Source of the DNA: Gordius sp. MW1
Taxonomy: Eukaryota; Nematomorpha; Gordioida; Gordea; Gordiidae
Assembly (NCBI GenBank): GCA_964036665.1
Contig: OZ038533.1
Coordinates: forward strand, 19,588,575 to 19,652,574
Reading direction: 5' to 3'
DNA: 64,000 nucleotides
Both the position numbers and the translations under genes were made by a program. The notes below the pieces were generated by a model, which searched no databases, had not been told where the DNA came from, and was given only the letters and a program-made list of their open reading frames with translations. Below, piece after piece: positions 26,268-44,216 of this stretch. The stretch's first letter is position 1. Every line of letters starts with the position of its first letter.

Positions 26268-26319
26268 TTTTGCGTTTTGCTTTACGTGCCGTAACGCCCA
26301 TACCCATAATTTTTACCCT

Positions 26320-27156
26320 ATGGCCTACCATCTACGTTCTATAACTACCACCTCTGTCGCCACGACAGCCCCCACTTTTACAACGTCCAACCCTACCCTA
26401 GAACCCCCCTTCAGTGAGGTGCGAGACGACGAAGAAGACTCCCACCTTGACTCCACGGGGGCATCCAATTTCTTGGACGCCACCAAGGACGACCCGGGCA
26501 CGCCACTAGCATCCAATACAGTGGAATGGATTGCGAAAGAGCTAAAGTCAATAAGGAATGATGTAATATCCTTACGACGAGCAAAAGAGCAAGAATCGCG
26601 GAGCAAAAGTACCAGTAATGCTCCGACATGGGCCCCCCCATACATTCCCCCCTTGTTACAACCACCAATCTTTAACCCACCACGTCAATTACCGACAATA
26701 TCAACTCAATACAGCCCAAACACTTTTACCCTTACTCATGATGAGTTGAACGCAATCATCACTAGAGAGGTGGAAAAGAAAGTCTCGGGAATCGAACAGA
26801 CAGGCACTGACCTACTTAAACAAAGACTTAAAGGCCTCAAGGAAGCCGACGAGAAAAACAAAACCATCCCATTGTACCAAAAACACGAGATAGATTTCCT
26901 CCTGGAATTAGGAGAGGTATGGGATGATCAAACCAAAGCCACGGATGTGTTCTCCGAAAGAATAAAAACAATAGCCATGGCAACATACTACGGATGGCAG
27001 GTGGTGACTGGTAAAACCAAGGATTGGGCAGTAAAAAATGGATTCGGACAAATGGGGGAGCAAATTAATTCTTTTCGTCCGAATTATCAACAGCCTATGC
27101 CAAGGAAGGCGCCTTTCAACAGAAAGAAAGGGGCGCCTGAGGCTAGGAAGGACTGA
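26320..27156 (+). CDS. Array unit 1 ORF1, Gag/core-like protein
   Basis: 278 aa. Residues 1-60 are Thr/Ser-rich then acidic. Residues 68-96 (VEWIAKELKSIRNDVISLRR and beyond) are predicted coiled coil. Residues 102-124 are Pro-rich. Residues 135-240 look alpha-helical, and 253-278 form a basic, Pro-rich tail (RPNYQQPMPRKAPFNRKKG). There is no zinc knuckle. The position before the polymerase and the basic tail suggest a nucleocapsid-type role; this is inference, since I recognise no family. ATG 26320 is preferred over a TTG 57 bases upstream seen in later units. The last 119 nt overlap ORF2 in the +1 frame. Confidence 0.75.
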   Translation: MAYHLRSITTTSVATTAPTFTTSNPTLEPPFSEVRDDEEDSHLDSTGASNFLDATKDDPGTPLASNTVEWIAKELKSIRNDVISLRRAKEQESRSKSTSNAPTWAPPYIPPLLQPPIFNPPRQLPTISTQYSPNTFTLTHDELNAIITREVEKKVSGIEQTGTDLLKQRLKGLKEADEKNKTIPLYQKHEIDFLLELGEVWDDQTKATDVFSERIKTIAMATYYGWQVVTGKTKDWAVKNGFGQMGEQINSFRPNYQQPMPRKAPFNRKKGAPEARKD

Positions 27157-29014
27157 GCGACGTATCGTGCGGACGGCGGCGGCGACCCTCGGCAGCGGTG
27201 ATAACCCGCCGAGCATCAATGGGGGACGGACCGCTCCAACATGGCTAAATAACTATATTCAATTAGCCCGGAGCATCGCTATCAACTCTGTCTCCCTTGA
27301 TGATGGACCGGATGAAGGGACCCCTCCACTGGATCACCCTTCTACGTCGCCGCCTGAGCACGCTGAGGTGCCGGAATTCCTCAATGGCCCCCTTCATGAT
27401 ATCGGATTAGATAGCGAGCCGATCCCCACCATTAACGAGCCCTCTAATATCCCCAACTTCCCCGCTTTCTGGGACATCAGTGATGGTAATCGAATCCCCT
27501 TCTCATCACCCCTGGATTTAGCTGCAACATTATTACGGCCCCATCACTCCCAATCCCTTTTCACATTCAATGTCGCTACCAAAGGGTTTAAACCCAAAAT
27601 AAGTAGGCGAGCCCTCGCCAATAACAATTGGCAATACCTTGTCCCCAGGTATGTTAGGCCAATTCCTCGCGTCCACAGGAACCTGGTGGCACAGGTTACC
27701 AACTCACATATCGTTAGACGCAATACCAACACAATCCCATCCCCTATGTACTTTATACCCAAAAGCGATGGGTCCCCACGTATGATCGCGGATCTTTCAA
27801 TTATCTCCAAAAACTTTGTATCATACCCCTTTTCACTTCGATCTATCCCCTTGATTGCAAAACCTTTAGCAGAAGCCAATTACGCTTGCAAGATAGATAT
27901 GAAAAGTGCGTTCTTTGCCATACAACTTGACCCATCAATTTCACACCTGTTCGGCTTTAAGTCCGGAAGACACAAATACTCATACAAAGTCCTCCCAATG
28001 GGGGCGTCCTTTTCACCTTACGTGTTACAACAGATTATGCTAGACTTATGCGAGAAGTCAGTAACGACTTGCCGATATAACGTATACCTTGATGATATAT
28101 TAATTTACGGCACCACAGTGGAAGAAGTACGCAGTAACACCAAATCCTTCCTGAGATTAGCACGGAAATGGAATCTTTCGATCAATGTAATGAAATCTGA
28201 AACCACACCCCAGCGAATGCTCAACTACCTCGGGATTTACATTAACCTGATTCAGCATCAATTATCGATCAATGCAAAGTTCTTAAGAAAAATCGATGCG
28301 GCTATCATGATCATCTCACATTTCATCACAACAAACAAAAAACCACACCCGATAGTAGCGCAAACATGCCTAGGAATACTTACACATTACACTTACATGG
28401 TGACTGGATGGACTAAGTTCTTTTCCCCAGCATACAACATCTGTCTCGGGGCAACAAATATACCATTCAATACAAGACTCCTGGTACAAAAAATGGTAAC
28501 TCTCAAGACCTTAATGAACCACCCGTTACCAATGGTGACCACTTATGACAGTGATGCGTACGGTGACGCATCCACCAGCCACATTGGCATATACTTTATG
28601 GCTGAATTCATGTCAGTAACAATCGCTGACGCTTTGGCAATGTTTAAATGTCAAAACTACATACCAACAATCAACTTGTTAGAATTACTCGCTATACCTA
28701 TAGCGTACCTCAGGGTATTAGTAGAATATCCCAATATGACGCCTACAATTTACACCGATTCAAAAACCGCCTTTTATATTTTCAAAAAAGGGTCGGCACA
28801 CGCACCACACCTGGAAGGTGCGTTTACCAAAATAGCACTATGTATAGGTATACATCACGTACTAAAAATAAAAAATGGGCTGAAATGGGTGCCCACAGAT
28901 CAAAACATGGCCGACCTACCATCACGAGAATTCTTCAATGATGAATACATGGTCGACCTAATAACACAGAAATGCACACCCGAAGTTATCGTCCCCGACG
29001 AATCCTACCAATAA
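27038..29014 (+). CDS. Array unit 1 ORF2, reverse transcriptase-RNase H
   Basis: 658 aa. Residues 1-200 are an unassigned N-terminal part. RT motifs: PKSDGSPRMIADLS (241-254), motif A IDMKSAFF with D287, motif B LPMGASFSP (319-327), motif C YLDD (350-353), motif E YLGI (397-400). RNase H: D510 (GDAS), E549 (NLLEL), D574 (YTDSK) and D626 (MADLPSR). All catalytic acidic residues expected for both activities are visible. No protease or integrase follows. ATG 27038 is in a favourable context (A at -3, G at +4) inside ORF1, so expression by re-initiation, leaky scanning or +1 frameshift are all possible. The stop overlaps AATAAA, a likely poly(A) signal. Confidence 0.88.
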   Translation: MDSDKWGSKLILFVRIINSLCQGRRLSTERKGRLRLGRTERRIVRTAAATLGSGDNPPSINGGRTAPTWLNNYIQLARSIAINSVSLDDGPDEGTPPLDHPSTSPPEHAEVPEFLNGPLHDIGLDSEPIPTINEPSNIPNFPAFWDISDGNRIPFSSPLDLAATLLRPHHSQSLFTFNVATKGFKPKISRRALANNNWQYLVPRYVRPIPRVHRNLVAQVTNSHIVRRNTNTIPSPMYFIPKSDGSPRMIADLSIISKNFVSYPFSLRSIPLIAKPLAEANYACKIDMKSAFFAIQLDPSISHLFGFKSGRHKYSYKVLPMGASFSPYVLQQIMLDLCEKSVTTCRYNVYLDDILIYGTTVEEVRSNTKSFLRLARKWNLSINVMKSETTPQRMLNYLGIYINLIQHQLSINAKFLRKIDAAIMIISHFITTNKKPHPIVAQTCLGILTHYTYMVTGWTKFFSPAYNICLGATNIPFNTRLLVQKMVTLKTLMNHPLPMVTTYDSDAYGDASTSHIGIYFMAEFMSVTIADALAMFKCQNYIPTINLLELLAIPIAYLRVLVEYPNMTPTIYTDSKTAFYIFKKGSAHAPHLEGAFTKIALCIGIHHVLKIKNGLKWVPTDQNMADLPSREFFNDEYMVDLITQKCTPEVIVPDESYQ

Positions 29015-29176
29015 ATGAAAATTACACTTAGAACTACAACCGATTTGCTAAAGCTTAAAGACCGTAACTTAGTCTAAGAATCTTACTATAATTCAAGACT
29101 AGTAATTTACTAATTATTCTTGTCTTTTGCGTTTTGCTTTACGTGCCGTAACGCCCATACCCATAATTTTTACCCT
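29015..29176 (+). promoter_or_regulatory. Inter-unit non-coding region (repeated in every unit)
   Basis: The only non-coding DNA of the element, about 160 bp. The preceding stop codon lies in CAATAAATG, giving a poly(A) signal. Further on are 'cttactataattc' (TATA-like) and then the unit start. If transcription starts here and ends at the next AATAAA, the RNA would span one unit. Equivalent regions are at 31872-32033, 34729-34890 and 37586-37747, and in inverted orientation at 41238-41393. The promoter role is inferred from position and AT-rich motif only. Confidence 0.45.
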
Positions 29177-30013
29177 ATGGCCTACCATCTACGTTCTATA
29201 ACTACCACCTCTGTCGCCACGACAGCCCCCACTTTTACAACGTCCAACCCTACCCTAGAACCCCCCTTCAGTGAGGTGCGAGACGACGAAGAAGACTCCC
29301 ACCTTGACTCCACGGGGGCATCCAATTTCTTGGACGCCACCAAGGACGACCCGGGCACGCCACTAGCATCCAATACAGTGGAATGGATTGCGAAAGAGCT
29401 AAAGTCAATAAGGAATGATGTAATATCCTTACGACGAGCAAAAGAGCAAGAATCGCGGAGCAAAAGTACCAGTAATGCTCCGACATGGGCCCCCCCATAC
29501 ATTCCCCCCTTGTTACAACCACCAATCTTTAACCCACCACGTCAATTACCGACAATATCAACTCAATACAGCCCAAACACTTTTACCCTTACTCATGATG
29601 AGTTGAACGCAATCATCACTAGAGAGGTGGAAAAGAAAGTCTCGGGAATCGAACAGACAGGCACTGACCTACTTAAACAAAGACTTAAAGGCCTCAAGGA
29701 AGCCGACGAGAAAAACAAAACCATCCCATTGTACCAAAAACACGAGATAGATTTCCTCCTGGAATTAGGAGAGGTATGGGATGATCAAACCAAAGCCACG
29801 GATGTGTTCTCCGAAAGAATAAAAACAATAGCCATGGCAACATACTACGGATGGCAGGTGGTGACTGGTAAAACCAAGGATTGGGCAGTAAAAAATGGAT
29901 TCGGACAAATGGGGGAGCAAATTAATTCTTTTCGTCCGAATTATCAACAGCCTATGCCAAGGAAGGCGCCTTTCAACAGAAAGAAAGGGGCGCCTGAGGC
30001 TAGGAAGGACTGA
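29177..30013 (+). CDS. Array unit 2 ORF1, Gag/core-like protein
   Basis: Identical in translation to ORF1 of unit 1 (278 aa, E213). In this and later units the frame is also open upstream to a TTG at 29120. That adds MSFAFCFTCRNAHTHNFYP only if a non-AUG start is used, which I consider unlikely. Confidence 0.75.
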   Translation: MAYHLRSITTTSVATTAPTFTTSNPTLEPPFSEVRDDEEDSHLDSTGASNFLDATKDDPGTPLASNTVEWIAKELKSIRNDVISLRRAKEQESRSKSTSNAPTWAPPYIPPLLQPPIFNPPRQLPTISTQYSPNTFTLTHDELNAIITREVEKKVSGIEQTGTDLLKQRLKGLKEADEKNKTIPLYQKHEIDFLLELGEVWDDQTKATDVFSERIKTIAMATYYGWQVVTGKTKDWAVKNGFGQMGEQINSFRPNYQQPMPRKAPFNRKKGAPEARKD

Positions 30014-31871
30014 GCGACGTATCGTGCGGACGGCGGCGGCGACCCTCGGCAGCGGTGATAACCCGCCGAGCATCAATGGGGGACGGACCGCTCCAACATG
30101 GCTAAATAACTATATTCAATTAGCCCGGAGCATCGCTATCAACTCTGTCTCCCTTGATGATGGACCGGATGAAGGGACCCCTCCACTGGATCACCCTTCT
30201 ACGTCGCCGCCTGAGCACGCTGAGGTGCCGGAATTCCTCAATGGCCCCCTTCATGATATCGGATTAGATAGCGAGCCGATCCCCACCATTAACGAGCCCT
30301 CTAATATCCCCAACTTCCCCGCTTTCTGGGACATCAGTGATGGTAATCGAATCCCCTTCTCATCACCCCTGGATTTAGCTGCAACATTATTACGGCCCCA
30401 TCACTCCCAATCCCTTTTCACATTCAATGTCGCTACCAAAGGGTTTAAACCCAAAATAAGTAGGCGAGCCCTCGCCAATAACAATTGGCAATACCTTGTC
30501 CCCAGGTATGTTAGGCCAATTCCTCGCGTCCACAGGAACCTGGTGGCACAGGTTACCAACTCACATATCGTTAGACGCAATACCAACACAATCCCATCCC
30601 CTATGTACTTTATACCCAAAAGCGATGGGTCCCCACGTATGATCGCGGATCTTTCAATTATCTCCAAAAACTTTGTATCATACCCCTTTTCACTTCGATC
30701 TATCCCCTTGATTGCAAAACCTTTAGCAGAAGCCAATTACGCTTGCAAGATAGATATGAAAAGTGCGTTCTTTGCCATACAACTTGACCCATCAATTTCA
30801 CACCTGTTCGGCTTTAAGTCCGGAAGACACAAATACTCATACAAAGTCCTCCCAATGGGGGCGTCCTTTTCACCTTACGTGTTACAACAGATTATGCTAG
30901 ACTTATGCGAGAAGTCAGTAACGACTTGCCGATATAACGTATACCTTGATGATATATTAATTTACGGCACCACAGTGGAAGAAGTACGCAGTAACACCAA
31001 ATCCTTCCTGAGATTAGCACGGAAATGGAATCTTTCGATCAATGTAATGAAATCTGAAACCACACCCCAGCGAATGCTCAACTACCTCGGGATTTACATT
31101 AACCTGATTCAGCATCAATTATCGATCAATGCAAAGTTCTTAAGAAAAATCGATGCGGCTATCATGATCATCTCACATTTCATCACAACAAACAAAAAAC
31201 CACACCCGATAGTAGCGCAAACATGCCTAGGAATACTTACACATTACACTTACATGGTGACTGGATGGACTAAGTTCTTTTCCCCAGCATACAACATCTG
31301 TCTCGGGGCAACAAATATACCATTCAATACAAGACTCATGGTACAAAAAATGGTAACTCTCAAGACCTTAATGAACCACCCGTTACCAATGGTGACCACT
31401 TATGACAGTGATGCGTACGGTGACGCATCCACCAGCCACATTGGCATATACTTTATGGCTGAATTCATGTCAGTAACAATCGCTGACGCTTTGGCAATGT
31501 TTAAATGTCAAAACTACATACCAACAATCAACTTGTTAGAATTACTCGCTATACCTATAGCGTACCTCAGGGTATTAGTAGAATATCCCAATATGACGCC
31601 TACAATTTACACCGATTCAAAAACCGCCTTTTATATTTTCAAAAAAGGGTCGGCACACGCACCACACCTGGAAGGTGCGTTTACCAAAATAGCACTATGT
31701 ATAGGTATACATCACGTACTAAAAATAAAAAATGGGCTGAAATGGGTGCCCACAGATCAAAACATGGCCGACCTACCATCACGAGAATTCTTCAATGATG
31801 AATACATGGTCGACCTAATAACACAGAAATGCACACCCGAAGTTATCGTCCCCGACGAATCCTACCAATAA
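29895..31871 (+). CDS. Array unit 2 ORF2, reverse transcriptase-RNase H
   Basis: 658 aa, intact, with all RT and RNase H catalytic residues as in unit 1. One replacement, L481M, results from a C-to-A change at 31338 between the RT and RNase H domains, and is unlikely to affect function. Confidence 0.85.
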   Translation: MDSDKWGSKLILFVRIINSLCQGRRLSTERKGRLRLGRTERRIVRTAAATLGSGDNPPSINGGRTAPTWLNNYIQLARSIAINSVSLDDGPDEGTPPLDHPSTSPPEHAEVPEFLNGPLHDIGLDSEPIPTINEPSNIPNFPAFWDISDGNRIPFSSPLDLAATLLRPHHSQSLFTFNVATKGFKPKISRRALANNNWQYLVPRYVRPIPRVHRNLVAQVTNSHIVRRNTNTIPSPMYFIPKSDGSPRMIADLSIISKNFVSYPFSLRSIPLIAKPLAEANYACKIDMKSAFFAIQLDPSISHLFGFKSGRHKYSYKVLPMGASFSPYVLQQIMLDLCEKSVTTCRYNVYLDDILIYGTTVEEVRSNTKSFLRLARKWNLSINVMKSETTPQRMLNYLGIYINLIQHQLSINAKFLRKIDAAIMIISHFITTNKKPHPIVAQTCLGILTHYTYMVTGWTKFFSPAYNICLGATNIPFNTRLMVQKMVTLKTLMNHPLPMVTTYDSDAYGDASTSHIGIYFMAEFMSVTIADALAMFKCQNYIPTINLLELLAIPIAYLRVLVEYPNMTPTIYTDSKTAFYIFKKGSAHAPHLEGAFTKIALCIGIHHVLKIKNGLKWVPTDQNMADLPSREFFNDEYMVDLITQKCTPEVIVPDESYQ

Positions 31872-32033
31872 ATGAAAATTACACTTAGAACTACAACCGA
31901 TTTGCTAAAGCTTAAAGACCGTAACTTAGTCTAAGAATCTTACTATAATTCAAGACTAGTAATTTACTAATTATTCTTGTCTTTTGCGTTTTGCTTTACG
32001 TGCCGTAACGCCCATACCCATAATTTTTACCCT

Positions 32034-32870
32034 ATGGCCTACCATCTACGTTCTATAACTACCACCTCTGTCGCCACGACAGCCCCCACTTTTACAACGT
32101 CCAACCCTACCCTAGAACCCCCCTTCAGTGAGGTGCGAGACGACGAAGAAGACTCCCACCTTGACTCCACGGGGGCATCCAATTTCTTGGACGCCACCAA
32201 GGACGACCCGGGCACGCCACTAGCATCCAATACAGTGGAATGGATTGCGAAAGAGCTAAAGTCAATAAGGAATGATGTAATATCCTTACGACGAGCAAAA
32301 GAGCAAGAATCGCGGAGCAAAAGTACCAGTAATGCTCCGACATGGGCCCCCCCATACATTCCCCCCTTGTTACAACCACCAATCTTTAACCCACCACGTC
32401 AATTACCGACAATATCAACTCAATACAGCCCAAACACTTTTACCCTTACTCATGATGAGTTGAACGCAATCATCACTAGAGAGGTGGAAAAGAAAGTCTC
32501 GGGAATCGAACAGACAGGCACTGACCTACTTAAACAAAGACTTAAAGGCCTCAAGGAAGCCGACGAGAAAAACAAAACCATCCCATTGTACCAAAAACAC
32601 GAGATAGATTTCCTCCTGGAATTAGGAGAGGTATGGGATGATCAAACCAAAGCCACGGATGTGTTCTCCGAAAGAATAAAAACAATAGCCATGGCAACAT
32701 ACTACGGATGGCAGGTGGTGACTGGTAAAACCAAGGATTGGGCAGTAAAAAATGGATTCGGACAAATGGGGGAGCAAATTAATTCTTTTCGTCCGAATTA
32801 TCAACAGCCTATGCCAAGGAAGGCGCCTTTCAACAGAAAGAAAGGGGCGCCTGAGGCTAGGAAGGACTGA
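32034..32870 (+). CDS. Array unit 3 ORF1, Gag/core-like protein
   Basis: 278 aa, same translation as units 1 and 2 (E213 form). It overlaps ORF2 of the same unit by 119 nt. Confidence 0.75.
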   Translation: MAYHLRSITTTSVATTAPTFTTSNPTLEPPFSEVRDDEEDSHLDSTGASNFLDATKDDPGTPLASNTVEWIAKELKSIRNDVISLRRAKEQESRSKSTSNAPTWAPPYIPPLLQPPIFNPPRQLPTISTQYSPNTFTLTHDELNAIITREVEKKVSGIEQTGTDLLKQRLKGLKEADEKNKTIPLYQKHEIDFLLELGEVWDDQTKATDVFSERIKTIAMATYYGWQVVTGKTKDWAVKNGFGQMGEQINSFRPNYQQPMPRKAPFNRKKGAPEARKD

Positions 32871-34728
32871 GCGACGTATCGTGCGGACGGCGGCGGCGAC
32901 CCTCGGCAGCGGTGATAACCCGCCGAGCATCAATGGGGGACGGACCGCTCCAACATGGCTAAATAACTATATTCAATTAGCCCGGAGCATCGCTATCAAC
33001 TCTGTCTCCCTTGATGATGGACCGGATGAAGGGACCCCTCCACTGGATCACCCTTCTACGTCGCCGCCTGAGCACGCTGAGGTGCCGGAATTCCTCAATG
33101 GCCCCCTTCATGATATCGGATTAGATAGCGAGCCGATCCCCACCATTAACGAGCCCTCTAATATCCCCAACTTCCCCGCTTTCTGGGACATCAGTGATGG
33201 TAATCGAATCCCCTTCTCATCACCCCTGGATTTAGCTGCAACATTATTACGGCCCCATCACTCCCAATCCCTTTTCACATTCAATGTCGCTACCAAAGGG
33301 TTTAAACCCAAAATAAGTAGGCGAGCCCTCGCCAATAACAATTGGCAATACCTTGTCCCCAGGTATGTTAGGCCAATTCCTCGCGTCCACAGGAACCTGG
33401 TGGCACAGGTTACCAACTCACATATCGTTAGACGCAATACCAACACAATCCCATCCCCTATGTACTTTATACCCAAAAGCGATGGGTCCCCACGTATGAT
33501 CGCGGATCTTTCAATTATCTCCAAAAACTTTGTATCATACCCCTTTTCACTTCGATCTATCCCCTTGATTGCAAAACCTTTAGCAGAAGCCAATTACGCT
33601 TGCAAGATAGATATGAAAAGTGCGTTCTTTGCCATACAACTTGACCCATCAATTTCACACCTGTTCGGCTTTAAGTCCGGAAGACACAAATACTCATACA
33701 AAGTCCTCCCAATGGGGGCGTCCTTTTCACCTTACGTGTTACAACAGATTATGCTAGACTTATGCGAGAAGTCAGTAACGACTTGCCGATATAACGTATA
33801 CCTTGATGATATATTAATTTACGGCACCACAGTGGAAGAAGTACGCAGTAACACCAAATCCTTCCTGAGATTAGCACGGAAATGGAATCTTTCGATCAAT
33901 GTAATGAAATCTGAAACCACACCCCAGCGAATGCTCAACTACCTCGGGATTTACATTAACCTGATTCAGCATCAATTATCGATCAATGCAAAGTTCTTAA
34001 GAAAAATCGATGCGGCTATCATGATCATCTCACATTTCATCACAACAAACAAAAAACCACACCCGATAGTAGCGCAAACATGCCTAGGAATACTTACACA
34101 TTACACTTACATGGTGACTGGATGGACTAAGTTCTTTTCCCCAGCATACAACATCTGTCTCGGGGCAACAAATATACCATTCAATACAAGACTCCTGGTA
34201 CAAAAAATGGTAACTCTCAAGACCTTAATGAACCACCCGTTACCAATGGTGACCACTTATGACAGTGATGCGTACGGTGACGCATCCACCAGCCACATTG
34301 GCATATACTTTATGGCTGAATTCATGTCAGTAACAATCGCTGACGCTTTGGCAATGTTTAAATGTCAAAACTACATACCAACAATCAACTTGTTAGAATT
34401 ACTCGCTATACCTATAGCGTACCTCAGGGTATTAGTAGAATATCCCAATATGACGCCTACAATTTACACCGATTCAAAAACCGCCTTTTATATTTTCAAA
34501 AAAGGGTCGGCACACGCACCACACCTGGAAGGTGCGTTTACCAAAATAGCACTATGTATAGGTATACATCACGTACTAAAAATAAAAAATGGGCTGAAAT
34601 GGGTGCCCACAGATCAAAACATGGCCGACCTACCATCACGAGAATTCTTCAATGATGAATACATGGTCGACCTAATAACACAGAAATGCACACCCGAAGT
34701 TATCGTCCCCGACGAATCCTACCAATAA
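32752..34728 (+). CDS. Array unit 3 ORF2, reverse transcriptase-RNase H
   Basis: 658 aa, intact, and same translation as unit 1 (L481). YLDD and the four RNase H acidic residues are kept. Confidence 0.85.
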   Translation: MDSDKWGSKLILFVRIINSLCQGRRLSTERKGRLRLGRTERRIVRTAAATLGSGDNPPSINGGRTAPTWLNNYIQLARSIAINSVSLDDGPDEGTPPLDHPSTSPPEHAEVPEFLNGPLHDIGLDSEPIPTINEPSNIPNFPAFWDISDGNRIPFSSPLDLAATLLRPHHSQSLFTFNVATKGFKPKISRRALANNNWQYLVPRYVRPIPRVHRNLVAQVTNSHIVRRNTNTIPSPMYFIPKSDGSPRMIADLSIISKNFVSYPFSLRSIPLIAKPLAEANYACKIDMKSAFFAIQLDPSISHLFGFKSGRHKYSYKVLPMGASFSPYVLQQIMLDLCEKSVTTCRYNVYLDDILIYGTTVEEVRSNTKSFLRLARKWNLSINVMKSETTPQRMLNYLGIYINLIQHQLSINAKFLRKIDAAIMIISHFITTNKKPHPIVAQTCLGILTHYTYMVTGWTKFFSPAYNICLGATNIPFNTRLLVQKMVTLKTLMNHPLPMVTTYDSDAYGDASTSHIGIYFMAEFMSVTIADALAMFKCQNYIPTINLLELLAIPIAYLRVLVEYPNMTPTIYTDSKTAFYIFKKGSAHAPHLEGAFTKIALCIGIHHVLKIKNGLKWVPTDQNMADLPSREFFNDEYMVDLITQKCTPEVIVPDESYQ

Positions 34729-34890
34729 ATGAAAATTACACTTAGAACTACAACCGATTTGCTAAAGCTTAAAGACCGTAACTTAGTCTAAGAATCTTAC
34801 TATAATTCAAGACTAGTAATTTACTAATTATTCTTGTCTTTTGCGTTTTGCTTTACGTGCCGTAACGCCCATACCCATAATTTTTACCCT

Positions 34891-35727: not shown

Positions 35728-37585
35728 GCGACGTATCGTGCGGACGGCGGCGGCGACCCTCGGCAGCGGTGATAACCCGCCGAGCATCAATGGGGGACGG
35801 ACCGCTCCAACATGGCTAAATAACTATATTCAATTAGCCCGGAGCATCGCTATCAACTCTGTCTCCCTTGATGATGGACCGGATGAAGGGACCCCTCCAC
35901 TGGATCACCCTTCTACGTCGCCGCCTGAGCACGCTGAGGTGCCGGAATTCCTCAATGGCCCCCTTCATGATATCGGATTAGATAGCGAGCCGATCCCCAC
36001 CATTAACGAGCCCTCTAATATCCCCAACTTCCCCGCTTTCTGGGACATCAGTGATGGTAATCGAATCCCCTTCTCATCACCCCTGGATTTAGCTGCAACA
36101 TTATTACGGCCCCATCACTCCCAATCCCTTTTCACATTCAATGTCGCTACCAAAGGGTTTAAACCCAAAATAAGTAGGCGAGCCCTCGCCAATAACAATT
36201 GGCAATACCTTGTCCCCAGGTATGTTAGGCCAATTCCTCGCGTCCACAGGAACCTGGTGGCACAGGTTACCAACTCACATATCGTTAGACGCAATACCAA
36301 CACAATCCCATCCCCTATGTACTTTATACCCAAAAGCGATGGGTCCCCACGTATGATCGCGGATCTTTCAATTATCTCCAAAAACTTTGTATCATACCCC
36401 TTTTCACTTCGATCTATCCCCTTGATTGCAAAACCTTTAGCAGAAGCCAATTACGCTTGCAAGATAGATATGAAAAGTGCGTTCTTTGCCATACAACTTG
36501 ACCCATCAATTTCACACCTGTTCGGCTTTAAGTCCGGAAGACACAAATACTCATACAAAGTCCTCCCAATGGGGGCGTCCTTTTCACCTTACGTGTTACA
36601 ACAGATTATGCTAGACTTATGCGAGAAGTCAGTAACGACTTGCCGATATAACGTATACCTTGATGATATATTAATTTACGGCACCACAGTGGAAGAAGTA
36701 CGCAGTAACACCAAATCCTTCCTGAGATTAGCACGGAAATGGAATCTTTCGATCAATGTAATGAAATCTGAAACCACACCCCAGCGAATGCTCAACTACC
36801 TCGGGATTTACATTAACCTGATTCAGCATCAATTATCGATCAATGCAAAGTTCTTAAGAAAAATCGATGCGGCTATCATGATCATCTCACATTTCATCAC
36901 AACAAACAAAAAACCACACCCGATAGTAGCGCAAACATGCCTAGGAATACTTACACATTACACTTACATGGTGACTGGATGGACTAAGTTCTTTTCCCCA
37001 GCATACAACATCTGTCTCGGGGCAACAAATATACCATTCAATACAAGACTCCTGGTACAAAAAATGGTAACTCTCAAGACCTTAATGAACCACCCGTTAC
37101 CAATGGTGACCACTTATGACAGTGATGCGTACGGTGACGCATCCACCAGCCACATTGGCATATACTTTATGGCTGAATTCATGTCAGTAACAATCGCTGA
37201 CGCTTTGGCAATGTTTAAATGTCAAAACTACATACCAACAATCAACTTGTTAGAATTACTCGCTATACCTATAGCGTACCTCAGGGTATTAGTAGAATAT
37301 CCCAATATGACGCCTACAATTTACACCGATTCAAAAACCGCCTTTTATATTTTCAAAAAAGGGTCGGCACACGCACCACACCTGGAAGGTGCGTTTACCA
37401 AAATAGCACTATGTATAGGTATACATCACGTACTAAAAATAAAAAATGGGCTGAAATGGGTGCCCACAGATCAAAACATGGCCGACCTACCATCACGAGA
37501 ATTCTTCAATGATGAATACATGGTCGACCTAATAACACAGAAATGCACACCCGAAGTTATCGTCCCCGACGAATCCTACCAATAA
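35609..37585 (+). CDS. Array unit 4 ORF2, reverse transcriptase-RNase H
   Basis: 658 aa, intact, same translation as unit 1. The last complete ORF2 on the plus strand. Confidence 0.85.
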   Translation: MDSDKWGSKLILFVRIINSLCQGRRLSTERKGRLRLGRTERRIVRTAAATLGSGDNPPSINGGRTAPTWLNNYIQLARSIAINSVSLDDGPDEGTPPLDHPSTSPPEHAEVPEFLNGPLHDIGLDSEPIPTINEPSNIPNFPAFWDISDGNRIPFSSPLDLAATLLRPHHSQSLFTFNVATKGFKPKISRRALANNNWQYLVPRYVRPIPRVHRNLVAQVTNSHIVRRNTNTIPSPMYFIPKSDGSPRMIADLSIISKNFVSYPFSLRSIPLIAKPLAEANYACKIDMKSAFFAIQLDPSISHLFGFKSGRHKYSYKVLPMGASFSPYVLQQIMLDLCEKSVTTCRYNVYLDDILIYGTTVEEVRSNTKSFLRLARKWNLSINVMKSETTPQRMLNYLGIYINLIQHQLSINAKFLRKIDAAIMIISHFITTNKKPHPIVAQTCLGILTHYTYMVTGWTKFFSPAYNICLGATNIPFNTRLLVQKMVTLKTLMNHPLPMVTTYDSDAYGDASTSHIGIYFMAEFMSVTIADALAMFKCQNYIPTINLLELLAIPIAYLRVLVEYPNMTPTIYTDSKTAFYIFKKGSAHAPHLEGAFTKIALCIGIHHVLKIKNGLKWVPTDQNMADLPSREFFNDEYMVDLITQKCTPEVIVPDESYQ

Positions 37586-37747
37586 ATGAAAATTACACTT
37601 AGAACTACAACCGATTTGCTAAAGCTTAAAGACCGTAACTTAGTCTAAGAATCTTACTATAATTCAAGACTAGTAATTTACTAATTATTCTTGTCTTTTG
37701 CGTTTTGCTTTACGTGCCGTAACGCCCATACCCATAATTTTTACCCT

Positions 37748-38584
37748 ATGGCCTACCATCTACGTTCTATAACTACCACCTCTGTCGCCACGACAGCCCC
37801 CACTTTTACAACGTCCAACCCTACCCTAGAACCCCCCTTCAGTGAGGTGCGAGACGACGAAGAAGACTCCCACCTTGACTCCACGGGGGCATCCAATTTC
37901 TTGGACGCCACCAAGGACGACCCGGGCACGCCACTAGCATCCAATACAGTGGAATGGATTGCGAAAGAGCTAAAGTCAATAAGGAATGATGTAATATCCT
38001 TACGACGAGCAAAAGAGCAAGAATCGCGGAGCAAAAGTACCAGTAATGCTCCGACATGGGCCCCCCCATACATTCCCCCCTTGTTACAACCACCAATCTT
38101 TAACCCACCACGTCAATTACCGACAATATCAACTCAATACAGCCCAAACACTTTTACCCTTACTCATGATGAGTTGAACGCAATCATCACTAGAGAGGTG
38201 GAAAAGAAAGTCTCGGGAATCGAACAGACAGGCACTGACCTACTTAAACAAAGACTTAAAGGCCTCAAGGAAGCCGACGAGAAAAACAAAACCATCCCAT
38301 TGTACCAAAAACACGAGATAGATTTCCTCCTGGAATTAGGAGAGGTATGGGATGATCAAACCAAAGCCACGGATGTGTTCTCCAAAAGAATAAAAACAAT
38401 AGCCATGGCAACATACTACGGATGGCAGGTGGTGACTGGTAAAACCAAGGATTGGGCAGTAAAAAATGGATTCGGACAAATGGGGGAGCAAATTAATTCT
38501 TTTCGTCCGAATTATCAACAGCCTATGCCAAGGAAGGCGCCTTTCAACAGAAAGAAAGGGGCGCCTGAGGCTAGGAAGGACTGA
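37748..38584 (+). CDS. Array unit 5 ORF1, Gag/core-like protein (E213K)
   Basis: 278 aa, intact, carrying the E213K change (38384) of unit 4. Its partner ORF2 is broken 187 bp after this stop, so the unit as a whole is defective. Confidence 0.75.
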   Translation: MAYHLRSITTTSVATTAPTFTTSNPTLEPPFSEVRDDEEDSHLDSTGASNFLDATKDDPGTPLASNTVEWIAKELKSIRNDVISLRRAKEQESRSKSTSNAPTWAPPYIPPLLQPPIFNPPRQLPTISTQYSPNTFTLTHDELNAIITREVEKKVSGIEQTGTDLLKQRLKGLKEADEKNKTIPLYQKHEIDFLLELGEVWDDQTKATDVFSKRIKTIAMATYYGWQVVTGKTKDWAVKNGFGQMGEQINSFRPNYQQPMPRKAPFNRKKGAPEARKD

Positions 38585-38771
38585 GCGACGTATCGTGCGG
38601 ACGGCGGCGGCGACCCTCGGCAGCGGTGATAACCCGCCGAGCATCAATGGGGGACGGACCGCTCCAACATGGCTAAATAACTATATTCAATTAGCCCGGA
38701 GCATCGCTATCAACTCTGTCTCCCTTGATGATGGACCGGATGAAGGGACCCCTCCACTGGATCACCCTTCT
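38466..38771 (+). pseudogene. Array unit 5 ORF2, truncated at inverted junction
   Basis: Only the first 102 codons of ORF2 remain (to ...PPLDHPS). At 38771/38772 the sequence jumps to the opposite strand of another unit, and the frame runs into a stop at 38804. All RT and RNase H motifs are lost. Confidence 0.85.
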
Positions 38772-40423
38772 AGTAATTCTAACAAGTTGATTGTTGGTAT
38801 GTAGTTTTGACATTTAAACATTGCCAAAGCGTCAGCGATTGTTACTGACATGAATTCAGCCATAAAGTATATGCCAATGTGGCTGGTGGATGCGTCACCG
38901 TACGCATCACTGTCATAAGTGGTCACCATTGGTAACGGGTGGTTCATTAAGGTCTTGAGAGTTACCATTTTTTGTACCAGGAGTCTTGTATTGAATGGTA
39001 TATTTGTTGCCCCGAGACAGATGTTGTATGCTGGGGAAAAGAACTTAGTCCATCCAGTCACCATGTAAGTGTAATGTGTAAGTATTCCTAGGCATGTTTG
39101 CGCTACTATCGGGTGTGGTTTTTTGTTTGTTGTGATGAAATGTGAGATGATCATGATAGCCGCATCGATTTTTCTTAAGAACTTTGCATTGATCGATAAT
39201 TGATGCTGAATCAGGTTAATGTAAATCCCGAGGTAGTTGAGCATTCGCTGGGGTGTGGTTTCAGATTTCATTACATTGATCGAAAGATTCCATTTCCGTG
39301 CTAATCTCAGGAAGGATTTGGTGTTACTGCGTACTTCTTCCACTGTGGTGCCGTAAATTAATATATCATCAAGGTATACGTTATATCGGCAAGTCGTTAC
39401 TGACTTCTCGCATAAGTCTAGCATAATCTGTTGTAACACGTAAGGTGAAAAGGACGCCCCCATTGGGAGGACTTTGTATGAGTATTTGTGTCTTCCGGAC
39501 TTAAAGCCGAACAGGTGTGAAATTGATGGGTCAAGTTGTATGGCAAAGAACGCACTTTTCATATCTATCTTGCAAGCGTAATTGGCTTCTGCTAAAGGTT
39601 TTGCAATCAAGGGGATAGATCGAAGTGAAAAGGGGTATGATACAAAGTTTTTGGAGATAATTGAAAGATCCGCGATCATACGTGGGGACCCATCGCTTTT
39701 GGGTATAAAGTACATAGGGGATGGGATTGTGTTGGTATTGCGTCTAACGATATGTGAGTTGGTAACCTGTGCCACCAGGTTCCTGTGGACGCGAGGAATT
39801 GGCCTAACATACCTGGGGACAAGGTATTGCCAATTGTTATTGGCGAGGGCTCGCCTACTTATTTTGGGTTTAAACCCTTTGGTAGCGACATTGAATGTGA
39901 AAAGGGATTGGGAGTGATGGGGCCGTAATAATGTTGCAGCTAAATCCAGGGGTGATGAGAAGGGGATTCGATTACCATCACTGATGTCCCAGAAAGCGGG
40001 GAAGTTGGGGATATTAGAGGGCTCGTTAATGGTGGGGATCGGCTCGCTATCTAATCCGATATCATGAAGGGGGCCATTGAGGAATTCCGGCACCTCAGCG
40101 TGCTCAGGCGGCGACGTAGAAGGGTGATCCAGTGGAGGGGTCCCTTCATCCGGTCCATCATCAAGGGAGACAGAGTTGATAGCGATGCTCCGGGCTAATT
40201 GAATATAGTTATTTAGCCATGTTGGAGCGGTCCGTCCCCCATTGATGCTCGGCGGGTTATCACCGCTGCCGAGGGTCGCCGCCGCCGTCCGCACGATACG
40301 TCGCTCAGTCCTTCCTAGCCTCAGGCGCCCCTTTCTTTCTGTTGAAAGGCGCCTTCCTTGGCATAGGCTGTTGATAATTCGGACGAAAAGAATTAATTTG
40401 CTCCCCCATTTGTCCGAATCCAT
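38772..40423 (-). pseudogene. Array unit 6 ORF2, 3'-truncated (minus strand)
   Basis: Starts at the normal ATG (40423) and keeps all RT motifs including YLDD and the first two RNase H acidic residues (D510, E549). It is cut at NLLELL by the inverted junction, ending two chance codons later in neighbouring DNA. D574 and D626 are missing, so RNase H should be inactive. Confidence 0.85.
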
Positions 40424-41108
40424 TTTTTACTGCCCAATCCTTGGTTTTACCAGTCACCACCTGCCATCCGTAGTATGTTGCCATGGCTATTGTTTTTATT
40501 CTTTCGGAGAACACATCCGTGGCTTTGGTTTGATCATCCCATACCTCTCCTAATTCCAGGAGGAAATCTATCTCGTGTTTTTGGTACAATGGGATGGTTT
40601 TGTTTTTCTCGTCGGCTTCCTTGAGGCCTTTAAGTCTTTGTTTAAGTAGGTCAGTGCCTGTCTGTTCGATTCCCGAGACTTTCTTTTCCACCTCTCTAGT
40701 GATGATTGCGTTCAACTCATCATGAGTAAGGGTAAAAGTGTTTGGGCTGTATTGAGTTGATATTGTCGGTAATTGACGTGGTGGGTTAAAGATTGGTGGT
40801 TGTAACAAGGGGGGAATGTATGGGGGGGCCCATGTCGGAGCATTACTGGTACTTTTGCTCCGCGATTCTTGCTCTTTTGCTCGTCGTAAGGATATTACAT
40901 CATTCCTTATTGACTTTAGCTCTTTCGCAATCCATTCCACTGTATTGGATGCTAGTGGCGTGCCCGGGTCGTCCTTGGTGGCGTCCAAGAAATTGGATGC
41001 CCCCGTGGAGTCAAGGTGGGAGTCTTCTTCGTCGTCTCGCACCTCACTGAAGGGGGGTTCTAGGGTAGGGTTGGACGTTGTAAAAGTGGGGGCTGTCGTG
41101 GCGACAGA
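40305..41108 (-). pseudogene. Array unit 6 ORF1, 5'-replaced (minus strand)
   Basis: Matches ORF1 of the other units from its C-terminus (40305) back to the codons for about residue 13 (41108). There the first ~39 nt, including the ATG, are replaced by 129 nt of unrelated DNA (41109-41237). The longest ATG-initiated remainder begins at 41042 with MRDDEED, in place of the usual valine codon by alternative initiation, so a full protein is not expected. Confidence 0.8.
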
Positions 41109-41237
41109 ACCTCTTATGGAGGTTCTCCCTGGGGATGGTTACGCAAACGTTTCGCCATCTCCACTTTATTTTATTTTAGAACATTACACACTTATTTAAA
41201 TATGCATTATGGGTAATAATATATGCGGCAATAAATG
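41109..41237. other. 129-nt foreign segment replacing ORF1 start of unit 6
   Basis: Absent from every other unit. It contains a perfect 8-bp hairpin (agaacctc-ttatg-gaggttct) at its edge and is otherwise AT-rich like host DNA. It interrupts the element between 'gcgacaga' and 'aaaattatggg', replacing about 39 nt. It looks like filler DNA from end joining or a small insertion with deletion. Confidence 0.7.
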
Positions 41238-41393
41238 AAAATTATGGGTATGGGCGTTACGGCACGTAAAGCAAAACGCAAAAGACAAGAATAATTAGTA
41301 AATTACTAGTCTTGAATTATAGTAAGATTCTTAGACTAAGTTACGGTCTTTAAGCTTTAGCAAATCGGTTGTAGTTCTAAGTGTAATTTTCAT

Positions 41394-43370
41394 TTATTGG
41401 TAGGATTCGTCGGGGACGATAACTTCGGGTGTGCATTTCTGTGTTATTAGGTCGACCATGTATTCATCATTGAAGAATTCTCGTGATGGTAGGTCGGCCA
41501 TGTTTTGATCTGTGGGCACCCATTTCAGCCCATTTTTTATTTTTAGTACGTGATGTATACCTATACATAGTGCTATTTTGGTAAACGCACCTTCCAGGTG
41601 TGGTGCGTGTGCCGACCCTTTTTTGAAAATATAAAAGGCGGTTTTTGAATCGGTGTAAATTGTAGGCGTCATATTGGGATATTCTACTAATACCCTGAGG
41701 TACGCTATAGGTATAGCGAGTAATTCTAACAAGTTGATTGTTGGTATGTAGTTTTGACATTTAAACATTGCCAAAGCGTCAGCGATTGTTACTGACATGA
41801 ATTCAGCCATAAAGTATATGCCAATGTGGCTGGTGGATGCGTCACCGTACGCATCACTGTCATAAGTGGTCACCATTGGTAACGGGTGGTTCATTAAGGT
41901 CTTGAGAGTTACCATTTTTTGTACCAGGAGTCTTGTATTGAATGGTATATTTGTTGCCCCGAGACAGATGTTGTATGCTGGGGAAAAGAACTTAGTCCAT
42001 CCAGTCACCATGTAAGTGTAATGTGTAAGTATTCCTAGGCATGTTTGCGCTACTATCGGGTGTGGTTTTTTGTTTGTTGTGATGAAATGTGAGATGATCA
42101 TGATAGCCGCATCGATTTTTCTTAAGAACTTTGCATTGATCGATAATTGATGCTGAATCAGGTTAATGTAAATCCCGAGGTAGTTGAGCATTCGCTGGGG
42201 TGTGGTTTCAGATTTCATTACATTGATCGAAAGATTCCATTTCCGTGCTAATCTCAGGAAGGATTTGGTGTTACTGCGTACTTCTTCCACTGTGGTGCCG
42301 TAAATTAATATATCATCAAGGTATACGTTATATCGGCAAGTCGTTACTGACTTCTCGCATAAGTCTAGCATAATCTGTTGTAACACGTAAGGTGAAAAGG
42401 ACGCCCCCATTGGGAGGACTTTGTATGAGTATTTGTGTCTTCCGGACTTAAAGCCGAACAGGTGTGAAATTGATGGGTCAAGTTGTATTGCAAAGAACGC
42501 ACTTTTCATATCTATCTTGCAAGCGTAATTGGCTTCTGCTAAAGGTTTTGCAATCAAGGGGATAGATCGAAGTGAAAAGGGGTATGATACAAAGTTTTTG
42601 GAGATAATTGAAAGATCCGCGATCATACGTGGGGACCCATCGCTTTTGGGTATAAAGTACATAGGGGATGGGATTGTGTTGGTATTGCGTCTAACGATAT
42701 GTGAGTTGGTAACCTGTGCCACCAGGTTCCTGTGGACGCGAGGAATTGGCCTAACATACCTGGGGACAAGGTATTGCCAATTGTTATTGGCGAGGGCTCG
42801 CCTACTTATTTTGGGTTTAAACCCTTTGGTAGCGACATTGAATGTGAAAAGGGATTGGGAGTGATGGGGCCGTAATAATGTTGCAGCTAAATCCAGGGGT
42901 GATGAGAAGGGGATTCGATTACCATCACTGATGTCCCAGAAAGCGGGGAAGTTGGGGATATTAGAGGGCTCGTTAATGGTGGGGATCGGCTCGCTATCTA
43001 ATCCGATATCATGAAGGGGGCCATTGAGGAATTCCGGCACCTCAGCGTGCTCAGGCGGCGACGTAGAAGGGTGATCCAGTGGAGGGGTCCCTTCATCCGG
43101 TCCATCATCAAGGGAGACAGAGTTGATAGCGATGCTCCGGGCTAATTGAATATAGTTATTTAGCCATGTTGGAGCGGTCCGTCCCCCATTGATGCTCGGC
43201 GGGTTATCACCGCTGCCGAGGGTCGCCGCCGCCGTCCGCACGATACGTCGCTCAGTCCTTCCTAGCCTCAGGCGCCCCTTTCTTTCTGTTGAAAGGCGCC
43301 TTCCTTGGCATAGGCTGTTGATAATTCGGACGAAAAGAATTAATTTGCTCCCCCATTTGTCCGAATCCAT
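41394..43370 (-). CDS. Array unit 7 ORF2, reverse transcriptase-RNase H (minus strand)
   Basis: 658 aa, intact, same translation as unit 1. One silent change was seen (42489, Ala codon in motif A region). It is the only complete ORF2 on the minus strand. Confidence 0.85.
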   Translation of the reverse strand: MDSDKWGSKLILFVRIINSLCQGRRLSTERKGRLRLGRTERRIVRTAAATLGSGDNPPSINGGRTAPTWLNNYIQLARSIAINSVSLDDGPDEGTPPLDHPSTSPPEHAEVPEFLNGPLHDIGLDSEPIPTINEPSNIPNFPAFWDISDGNRIPFSSPLDLAATLLRPHHSQSLFTFNVATKGFKPKISRRALANNNWQYLVPRYVRPIPRVHRNLVAQVTNSHIVRRNTNTIPSPMYFIPKSDGSPRMIADLSIISKNFVSYPFSLRSIPLIAKPLAEANYACKIDMKSAFFAIQLDPSISHLFGFKSGRHKYSYKVLPMGASFSPYVLQQIMLDLCEKSVTTCRYNVYLDDILIYGTTVEEVRSNTKSFLRLARKWNLSINVMKSETTPQRMLNYLGIYINLIQHQLSINAKFLRKIDAAIMIISHFITTNKKPHPIVAQTCLGILTHYTYMVTGWTKFFSPAYNICLGATNIPFNTRLLVQKMVTLKTLMNHPLPMVTTYDSDAYGDASTSHIGIYFMAEFMSVTIADALAMFKCQNYIPTINLLELLAIPIAYLRVLVEYPNMTPTIYTDSKTAFYIFKKGSAHAPHLEGAFTKIALCIGIHHVLKIKNGLKWVPTDQNMADLPSREFFNDEYMVDLITQKCTPEVIVPDESYQ

Positions 43371-44088
43371 TTTTTACTGCCCAATCCTTGGTTTTACCAG
43401 TCACCACCTGCCATCCGTAGTATGTTGCCATGGCTATTGTTTTTATTCTTTCGGAGAACACATCCGTGGCTTTGGTTTGATCATCCCATACCTCTCCTAA
43501 TTCCAGGAGGAAATCTATCTCGTGTTTTTGGTACAATGGGATGGTTTTGTTTTTCTCGTCGGCTTCCTTGAGGCCTTTAAGTCTTTGTTTAAGTAGGTCA
43601 GTGCCTGTCTGTTCGATTCCCGAGACTTTCTTTTCCACCTCTCTAGTGATGATTGCGTTCAACTCATCATGAGTAAGGGTAAAAGTGTTTGGGCTGTATT
43701 GAGTTGATATTGTCGGTAATTGACGTGGTGGGTTAAAGATTGGTGGTTGTAACAAGGGGGGAATGTATGGGGGGGCCCATGTCGGAGCATTACTGGTACT
43801 TTTGCTCCGCGATTCTTGCTCTTTTGCTCGTCGTAAGGATATTACATCATTCCTTATTGACTTTAGCTCTTTCGCAATCCATTCCACTGTATTGGATGCT
43901 AGTGGCGTGCCCGGGTCGTCCTTGGTGGCGTCCAAGAAATTGGATGCCCCCGTGGAGTCAAGGTGGGAGTCTTCTTCGTCGTCTCGCACCTCACTGAAGG
44001 GGGGTTCTAGGGTAGGGTTGGACGTTGTAAAAGTGGGGGCTGTCGTGGCGACAGAGGTGGTAGTTATAGAACGTAGATGGTAGGCCAT
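43252..44088 (-). CDS. Array unit 7 ORF1, Gag/core-like protein (minus strand)
   Basis: 278 aa, intact, E213 form, starting at ATG 44088. Upstream of it 128 bp of the unit's own leader and the previous unit's spacer remain before the array ends at 44216. Confidence 0.75.
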   Translation of the reverse strand: MAYHLRSITTTSVATTAPTFTTSNPTLEPPFSEVRDDEEDSHLDSTGASNFLDATKDDPGTPLASNTVEWIAKELKSIRNDVISLRRAKEQESRSKSTSNAPTWAPPYIPPLLQPPIFNPPRQLPTISTQYSPNTFTLTHDELNAIITREVEKKVSGIEQTGTDLLKQRLKGLKEADEKNKTIPLYQKHEIDFLLELGEVWDDQTKATDVFSERIKTIAMATYYGWQVVTGKTKDWAVKNGFGQMGEQINSFRPNYQQPMPRKAPFNRKKGAPEARKD

Positions 44089-44216
44089 AGGGTAAAAATT
44101 ATGGGTATGGGCGTTACGGCACGTAAAGCAAAACGCAAAAGACAAGAATAATTAGTAAATTACTAGTCTTGAATTATAGTAAGATTCTTAGACTAAGTTA
44201 CGGTCTTTAAGCTTTA

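What the first reader, a model, noticed from the sequence alone, without database searches (positions are those of the whole stretch)
26268..44216. Integrase-less, LTR-less 2,857-bp retroelement in a near-identical tandem array
Each unit encodes only a Gag/core-like ORF1 and an RT-RNase H ORF2 with all catalytic residues, plus ~160 bp of spacer. No protein for integration is present. The exact head-to-tail period without LTRs suggests a circular or concatemeric DNA form of ~2.9 kb captured by the chromosome. Size, overlapping genes and lack of integrase recall pararetroviruses; the RT/RNase H arrangement also fits DIRS-like elements that have lost or use in trans a recombinase. I cannot assign it to a known family, and it may be a new one.
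Basis: partly seen in the sequence, partly recalled or inferred. Interest (0 to 1): 0.9.

Follow-up and report, generated by a model that had tools for sequence, protein, structure and literature searches.

The report
Integrase-free Gag-Pol retroelement arrays, horsehair-worm-like

Summary
The array is real: units of 2857 bp, 99.9-100% identical, about 4.4 on + (26268-38772), then 1.9 inverted on - (44216-38772). It is not LTR-less: the spacer holds a 122-bp repeat A. The complete element is A-ORF1-ORF2-A-B, about 3108 bp at 44216-41109; B ends in hairpins. The genome has at least 147 RT copies in many diverged lineages. In all 24 copies that passed my length limits (10 places) ORF2 is in the +1 frame; 9 of 9 representatives share a TTT-C slip site. 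RVT_1 was the only Pfam domain found; a genome search found no tyrosine recombinase. A repeats 98.6-100% identical within copies, varied breakpoints and one target with filler and no duplication suggest RT-made DNA captured by end joining. The only close relatives found among 5.8 billion proteins are three from Gordionus, a horsehair worm. RNase H looks DIRS-type; the RT is deep and unresolved. The nearest published kind by description is HEART, related to hepatitis-B-like viruses; I could not compare it.

The parts
26268..38772 (+). head-to-tail part of the array: about 4.4 units of 2857 bp; first unit begins inside A (unit position 111), last ends inside ORF2 (position 1187)
38772..44216 (-). 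inverted part: one element 44216-41109 (A to B), then a copy cut at both ends (positions 196-2532)
29049..29170 (+). repeat A (122 bp, LTR-like; TATA-like box by eye), further copies 31906-32027, 34763-34884, 37620-37741 (+), 44216-44095 and 41359-41238 (-), partial 26268-26313
   Evidence: positions computed; sequence; same kind of repeat in single copies
26320..27156 (+). ORF1, Gag/core-like by position, 278 aa, basic C-terminus; repeated in the units
   Evidence: no homolog found
27038..29014 (+). ORF2, 658 aa, RT and RNase H, +1 frame relative to ORF1
27038..27156 (+). ORF1/ORF2 overlap (119 nt) with the proposed +1 frameshift site TCT_TTT_CGT
   Evidence: related motif in PMC6315843
27740..28480 (+). 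RT domain (RVT_1, E 4.9e-25)
28481..29011 (+). RNase H domain
41109..41237 (-). B: 3' terminal stretch with two hairpins (second one about 6 nt shorter than in L009)
38772..38772 (.). tail-to-tail inversion junction, 1 nt shared

Best explanation
A family of compact retroelements of about 3.0-3.15 kb (A-gag-pol-A-B). Transcription starts inside A (promoter in A) and runs through the second A to the B hairpins; Gag-Pol is made by +1 frameshifting; RT-RNase H copies the RNA, presumably inside Gag particles. The two A copies let the nascent strand jump from the RNA's 5' end to the second A, which restores the 5' half of A and, when repeated on further templates, makes [A-body]n chains with a single A between units and B only at the end. 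No integration enzyme is known: the linear or concatemeric DNA is joined into breaks by host repair. Shown: anatomy, +1 overlap, A identity within copies, breakpoints, no enzyme domain found. Inferred: promoter use, frameshifting, template jumping, host repair.
For: A nearly identical within a copy: 100% in L019 (125 bp), L020 (120), L030 (131), L027 (55), 99.2% L029 (133), 98.6% L031 (141), while L019 and L020 differ from each other by 2.4% in A. +1 overlap in 24 of 24 copies from 10 places that met the length and overlap limits (array copies are not independent; copies with a broken or short ORF were not counted); in six loci (L009, L010, L011, L018, L019, L020) the first Met of an ORF2 comes 241-246 codons in, about at the RT start, so fusion by frameshift is the simplest route. 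TTT-C in zero frame 25-29 codons before the ORF1 stop in 9 of 9 representatives (no shuffled control made). B hairpins: fold z -7.1, -6.9, -3.8 for three sequences; helix of hairpin I paired in 34 of 35 cells, 3 of 5 pairs changed on both sides (51 of 500 shuffles also reach 3 pairs, 0 of 500 reach the covariation score); motif 57 times in the genome, 0 in the reversed control (many of the 57 lie in short satellite arrays). 5' ends: 12 of 17 rows show the full A (L031 too); window 26268, L017 and L027 start 46, 52 and 55 nt before the end of A, L028 about 33. L017 sits in a host repeat with 71 bp of unrelated sequence on one side, rearranged sequence on the other, no duplication seen. 14 tandem, 9 tail-to-tail, 8 head-to-head neighbour pairs among 147 merged copies. 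PF00589 0 matches, 14 of 14 control genomes positive.
Against: Only one insertion (L017) could be compared with an unoccupied form of its target, by eye. L030 has TAG on both sides of the element, which could be a 3-bp duplication or chance. How B survives while the 2857-bp period lacks it is inferred. No RNA data. Capture at chromosome ends is not supported: L027 abuts a CCCTAA array, but at C7 positions 1, 6000 and 12000 the sequence is not telomeric, so as assembled that array is internal; of 6 telomeric left ends none directly abuts an element in the 0.3-2.5 kb read beyond the border, C2 has a 3' fragment about 1.6 kb in. Tail-to-tail pairs with (nearly) identical halves (L011, L022) need a further step. 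A recombinase too distant for PF00589 is not excluded; the PF05869 search had a positive control in 1 of 14 genomes only.
Confidence: 0.55

Rival explanations
1. Endogenised DNA of an exogenous pararetrovirus-like agent (Blubervirales neighbourhood): many circulating strains captured one by one in the germ line as concatemers, no retrotransposon life cycle.
For: 2.7-3.1 kb with core-like and P-like overlapping genes matches the published size of nackednaviruses (2.7-3.1 kb, PMC11551314). In 38 of 42 RT places sampled the nearest relative elsewhere in the sample is below 95% (42 of 147, so a nearer one may be unsampled), while window units are 99.9-100%. dN/dS about 0.02-0.03 in the 3 of 10 pairs where dS was not saturated. 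In BFVD two long hepatitis B P rows give TM 0.60 and 0.61 by query length, named caulimovirid and retrovirus rows among the 50 listed 0.31-0.51.
Against: No TP or hepadnaviral RNase H Pfam match; Y-L-D-D, not the YMDD of PMC11551314; no relative in viral contigs in two scans. Other hepadnaviral rows have TM 0.36-0.51, and its E-values favour caulimovirids at least as much; rmsd values are large. B hairpins and A pairs look like an integrated retroelement. Four RT places have a partner at 97.8-99.3% elsewhere.
Confidence: 0.26
2. A DIRS/VIPER-type element that lost its tyrosine recombinase and uses one in trans.
For: RNase H profile matches DIRS-like RNase H (hhalign 97.4%, E 1.3e-11; 5 sequences) against 38.7% for Ty3-like (7 sequences); family plus DIRS-like P0045 not rejected.
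Against: PF00589 0 matches in the genome with 14 of 14 prokaryotic controls positive; PF05869 0 matches (weak control); no B copy before the second A seen, so no split direct repeats (by eye, 6 copies). The DIRS RT query to the genome did not complete.
Confidence: 0.08
3. A defective LTR element mobilised by Ty3-type integrase in trans.
For: 150 rve matches scored in the genome out of 2427 candidates. L030 has a possible 3-bp TAG duplication.
Against: No duplication of 4 bp or more by eye at 6 of 6 copies nor at L017; A does not start TG and end CA in these 6; B lies outside the second A; diverse lineages keep the same gene set under selection.
Confidence: 0.06
4. Assembly artefact or plain satellite amplification.
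For: Near-identical tandem units are hard to assemble; a 476-bp derivative array exists; C7 begins with more than 12 kb of non-telomeric sequence before a CCCTAA array, which could be an assembly fault there.
Against: Single copies with flanks exist (L019, L020, L030, L031); arrays of different subfamilies at several places; single-base differences between window units; 12 of 16 ends of C1-C8 are telomeric (C2 and C7 starts and the C6 end).
Confidence: 0.05

Closest known systems
HEART elements of insects (Gong and Han 2018; paper not held, known here only through PMC12440569 and PMC11551314)
   Same: Described there as endogenous retroelements related to hepadnaviruses and nackednaviruses, with unresolved mobilisation.
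   Different: Not comparable here: no sequence and no full text seen. Host group differs (insects; here probably a nematomorph).
DIRS / VIPER / TATE (PMC6681497 passages)
   Same: RNase H profile like DIRS; that paper reports TATE in tandem clusters in telomeric repeats and VIPER-like RNase H grouping with hepadnavirus.
   Different: No tyrosine recombinase, split direct repeats or methyltransferase found.
Nackednaviruses and Pliego virus, Blubervirales (PMC11551314 passages and first part of the text; PMC5604429 passages)
   Same: About 3 kb, core-like and P-like ORFs, no integrase.
   Different: No TP or PF00336 match, +1 slip site, chromosomal A-body-A-B form with hairpins, Y-L-D-D.
Ty3 and other LTR retrotransposons
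   Same: Gag-Pol-like +1 overlap (Ty3 comparison recalled), RT fold, A behaves like a short LTR.
   Different: No protease or integrase domain found, extra B after the second A, RT outside the Ty3-like+CaMV+foamy branch in the best tree.
Troyka (PMC12440569 abstract, section 12, passages)
   Same: LTR-type RT in animals, short LTRs possible.
   Different: Troyka encodes integrase and makes 3-bp duplications; not compared by sequence.
Penelope-like elements
   Same: Tandem and inverted copies (recalled; PMC3846280 abstract start seen in a listing for telomere-associated, endonuclease-deficient forms).
   Different: LTR-type RT with RNase H here; no GIY-YIG domain in the Pfam scans.

Membership tests
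LTR retrotransposon (Ty3/Metaviridae) | integrase (rve) | tested here: not met
   Pfam on pieces and on 15 aligned RT-RNase H members: only RVT_1 significant
LTR retrotransposon (Ty3/Metaviridae) | constant target-site duplication | tested here: inconclusive
   none of 4 bp or more by eye at 7 insertions; L030 has TAG on both sides; one target comparison only
LTR retrotransposon (Ty3/Metaviridae) | RT inside the Ty3 clade | tested here: inconclusive
   outside at 99/98, but AU does not reject, p 0.099
DIRS order | tyrosine recombinase | tested here: not met
   0 matches genome-wide; no such domain in pieces scanned
DIRS order | split direct or inverted terminal repeats | tested here: not met
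   A...A-B found, no B copy before the second A in 6 copies (by eye)
DIRS order | DIRS-type RNase H | tested here: met
   hhalign 97.4% against 38.7% for Ty3-like
Blubervirales (hepadna/nackedna) | terminal protein domain | tested here: not met
   no Pfam match in 2 of 2 N-terminal pieces
Blubervirales (hepadna/nackedna) | hepadnaviral RNase H PF00336 | tested here: not met
   not among the matches of 15 members; the genome search rang in no control, so it shows nothing
Blubervirales (hepadna/nackedna) | small circular DNA genome | not testable with these tools
   needs extrachromosomal DNA
Blubervirales (hepadna/nackedna) | RT phylogeny | not tested
   no hepadnaviral sequence was at hand; structure ranking inconclusive
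Caulimoviridae | RT clade | tested here: inconclusive
   family+CaMV p-AU 0.061
HEART | RT relation and structure | not tested
   paper not held, no sequence

The most novel reading that the evidence does not exclude
A deep, so far undescribed lineage of animal retroelements between DIRS/VIPER and the hepatitis-B-like viruses: Gag-Pol by +1 frameshift, DNA made by jumping between two A repeats, no integration enzyme at all, and long persistence by letting host repair take up its DNA.
Probability: 0.35. Interest if true: 0.9.

Novelty: new variant of a known kind. Interest (0 to 1): 0.72.

Why it matters
It offers a multi-lineage example of an apparently autonomous retroelement without a recognisable integrase, recombinase or endonuclease, with discrete ends and conserved 3' RNA structures. 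That makes the question of how such elements enter chromosomes, and how integrating retroelements and non-integrating viruses such as hepadnaviruses are related, testable largely by sequencing.

Tried and rejected
ORF1 homolog search: none at E 0.01. ORF1 structure from one sequence: pLDDT 43.7, not used. Rfam: nothing at gathering score in the window, weak matches below the families' cut-offs in L019 and L009. Viral contigs: none. Each place being its own lineage as proof of a virus: weakened by four RT places with a 97.8-99.3% partner. Split direct repeats: looked for, not seen. A circle as the only source of arrays: not needed, because joins of elements that keep B exist too (L014, L009/L010). 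Host naming by COX1: the PF00115 search did not complete.
Full report
What is there. The window is G000:C7:19588575-19652574 of a 212-Mb genome in 12 contigs, probably but not certainly a nematomorph: the basis is only that the close RT relatives found among 5.8 billion proteins are three Gordionus proteins (E 3.7e-157 to 2.2e-189 with profile A1, which contains them; E 5.7e-62 to 1.3e-82 with the window piece alone; next best 9.1e-26 and 6.2e-13; taxonomy). That search reaches only proteins sharing short exact words and within a length range. The array 26268-44216 repeats at exactly 2857 bp. Units on + cover 26268-38772, then the order inverts; the - part is one element 44216-41109 and one piece of positions 196-2532. 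The two sides meet tail to tail at 38772.

Anatomy. The spacer contains repeat A (122 bp). The complete element adds B after the second A. The same plan, A of 120-141 bp at a distance of 2780-3008 bp, was read in L019, L020, L029, L030 and L031, and with a 55-bp A in L027. No such repeat was found by the same comparison in L012 and L032, and only 44-47 bp pieces in L016 and L017. In L009, L010, L030 and the flank of L011, A carries CACGTG followed by TATATAA, so I infer a promoter there. After the second A the 6 copies continue with CG, the window and L014 with CA, L022 with CT; then come an AT-rich stretch, AATAAA-like letters and one or two hairpins. Hairpin I holds GGYGAAACNNTTGCGTAACC; this exact motif occurs 57 times in the genome, reversed control 0, many in short satellite arrays. 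Among 7 distinct sequences 34 of 35 cells of its 5-bp stem pair and 3 pairs show changes on both sides. L019, L020, L022, L027 and L029 have other hairpins in this place (folded only for L019; the others by eye), so the motif is not universal.

Coding. ORF1 is Gag- or core-like by position, predicted helical without confidence, with a basic, in some subfamilies RG-rich end; no homolog was found and the label is an inference. RVT_1 matches 15 of 15 members, and all RT and RNase H catalytic residues are present. ORF2 is in the +1 frame in 24 of 24 copies that met the limits (10 places; L009-L011 and L022-L023 are one place each), overlap 119-194 nt. The zero frame reads TCT TTT CGT in the window and TCC TTT CGT in L009 (second element) and L018, and TTT C in all 9 representatives; no shuffled control was made for this. 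UCC_UUU_CGU is a published +1 frameshift site (passages and a reference title in PMC6315843).

Relationship. Tree of 32 RT segments: the family is one clade (100/99) on a long stem of 2.4 changes per column, outside the Ty3-like + foamy + CaMV branch (99/98). The DIRS-like rows do not form one group, and several rows have long branches. AU tests do not reject family with CaMV (0.061), with both viral rows (0.146) or with Ty3-like (0.099), so the RT position is open. The labels DIRS-like and Ty3-like are mine, from domain content and recalled motifs. RNase H aligns far better with DIRS-like (97.4%) than with Ty3-like (38.7%) RNase H (14, 5 and 7 sequences). A model of RT-RNase H (pLDDT 81.8) finds an unnamed 634-aa viral protein first (E 3e-20, TM 0.60 by query length); two long hepatitis B P rows have TM 0.60 and 0.61, other hepadnaviral rows 0.36-0.51, named caulimovirid and retrovirus rows 0.31-0.51; E-values do not separate them. 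PDB best hits are MMLV, CaMV and Ty3 RT.

Genome-wide. One search reports 153 matches and lists 150; merged they give 147 copies, 52 of which have a neighbour within 4 kb: 14 tandem, 9 tail-to-tail, 8 head-to-head pairs, about 0.48 pairs expected. These are lower bounds. RT DNA of 42 places (a selection; some were chosen because their scores were alike, and two come from one array): nearest other place at least 98% in 2, 95-98 in 2, 90-95 in 10, 80-90 in 21, below 80 or none in 7. dN/dS is 0.02, 0.02 and 0.03 in 3 pairs; dS was saturated in 7 of 10. So many lineages are intact, strongly selected and, in this sample, mostly low-copy. Broken copies also exist: several rows have stops.

Ends and integration. 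In one search, 12 of 17 rows begin at the full A, the window's first unit, L027 and L028 begin inside it, L018 + has a snap-back, and the L031 row is uninformative (full A). The window, L017 and L027 start 46, 52 and 55 nt before the end of A; I read this as near the RNA start, though in the window and L027 it lies about 40 and 49 nt after the TATA-like box, further than usual. L017 lies in a host repeat whose unoccupied form is in L009 and the window (60540-60760): 71 bp of unrelated sequence on one side, rearranged sequence on the other, no duplication, read by eye. In the 6 copies no duplication of 4 bp or more was seen; L030 has TAG on both sides. L027 lies between a CCCTAA array and a satellite, but that array is not at the contig end: C7 positions 1, 6000 and 12000 are not telomeric, 18000 is. 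Of the 6 telomeric left ends (C1, C2, C3, C5, C6, C8) none directly abuts an element in the 0.3-2.5 kb read. No tyrosine recombinase and no Dam-type methyltransferase (weak control) match; integrases of other elements abound, the nearest listed one 9.1 kb from an RT hit, compared by eye.

Mechanism. I favour RT-made DNA captured by host end joining, with chains made by jumping from the RNA 5' end to the second A of another template. This predicts single A between units and B only at the end, as on the + part of the window (no B) and the first - element (B at its end). Joins of elements that keep B also occur (L014, period about 3.15 kb, L009/L010), so more than one kind of joining is needed. 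Recombination through A or a circle could make the 2857-bp period as well.

Known and new. Listings of searches for a description showed no paper on this family; the library lacks most subscription papers. Papers: PMC6681497, PMC4157794, PMC5604429, PMC7955980 and PMC6315843 passages; PMC12440569 abstract, section 12, passages and reference list; PMC11551314 passages and the first of two parts of its main section. HEART is the nearest published kind by description; its paper is not held. I therefore call this a new variant of a known kind and leave open a separate lineage.

Noticed in passing
G000:C8:8838000-8864000 (L009-L011): Chimeric array in which two subfamilies of about 41% RT identity lie side by side as A-to-B elements, with one head-to-head pair between them.
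   Followed up: partly
G000:C1:22967534-22977472 (L038 part): Tandem array of about 476-bp units with A, B and hairpins and matches to an RT fragment and the end of ORF2: a satellite derived from the element; a shorter run at C4:20350128-20352023.
   Followed up: partly
window 59087-60881: Host repeat with internal tandem units; parts of it lie in L009, L015, L017, L018, L024, L026 and L032 and at C7:6000.
   Followed up: partly
L027 (G000:C7:23500-31000) and C7:1-18060: An element sits exactly between a CCCTAA array and a satellite; more than 12 kb of non-telomeric sequence precedes that array at the contig start, so it is an internal telomeric block or an assembly fault.
   Followed up: partly
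L018 about 1870-1930: 5' end of the + copy carries an inverted copy of the first about 45 nt of A (snap-back).
   Followed up: no
window 26190-26265: Left flank is a run of G and C tracts directly before the array.
   Followed up: no
window 55508-55768 and 11647-12315: Flanking host genes: an SMC-protein hinge exon and an amino acid permease exon.
   Followed up: partly
P0001-P0003: Three Gordionus 'uncharacterized proteins' in NCBI are members of this retroelement family.
   Followed up: yes
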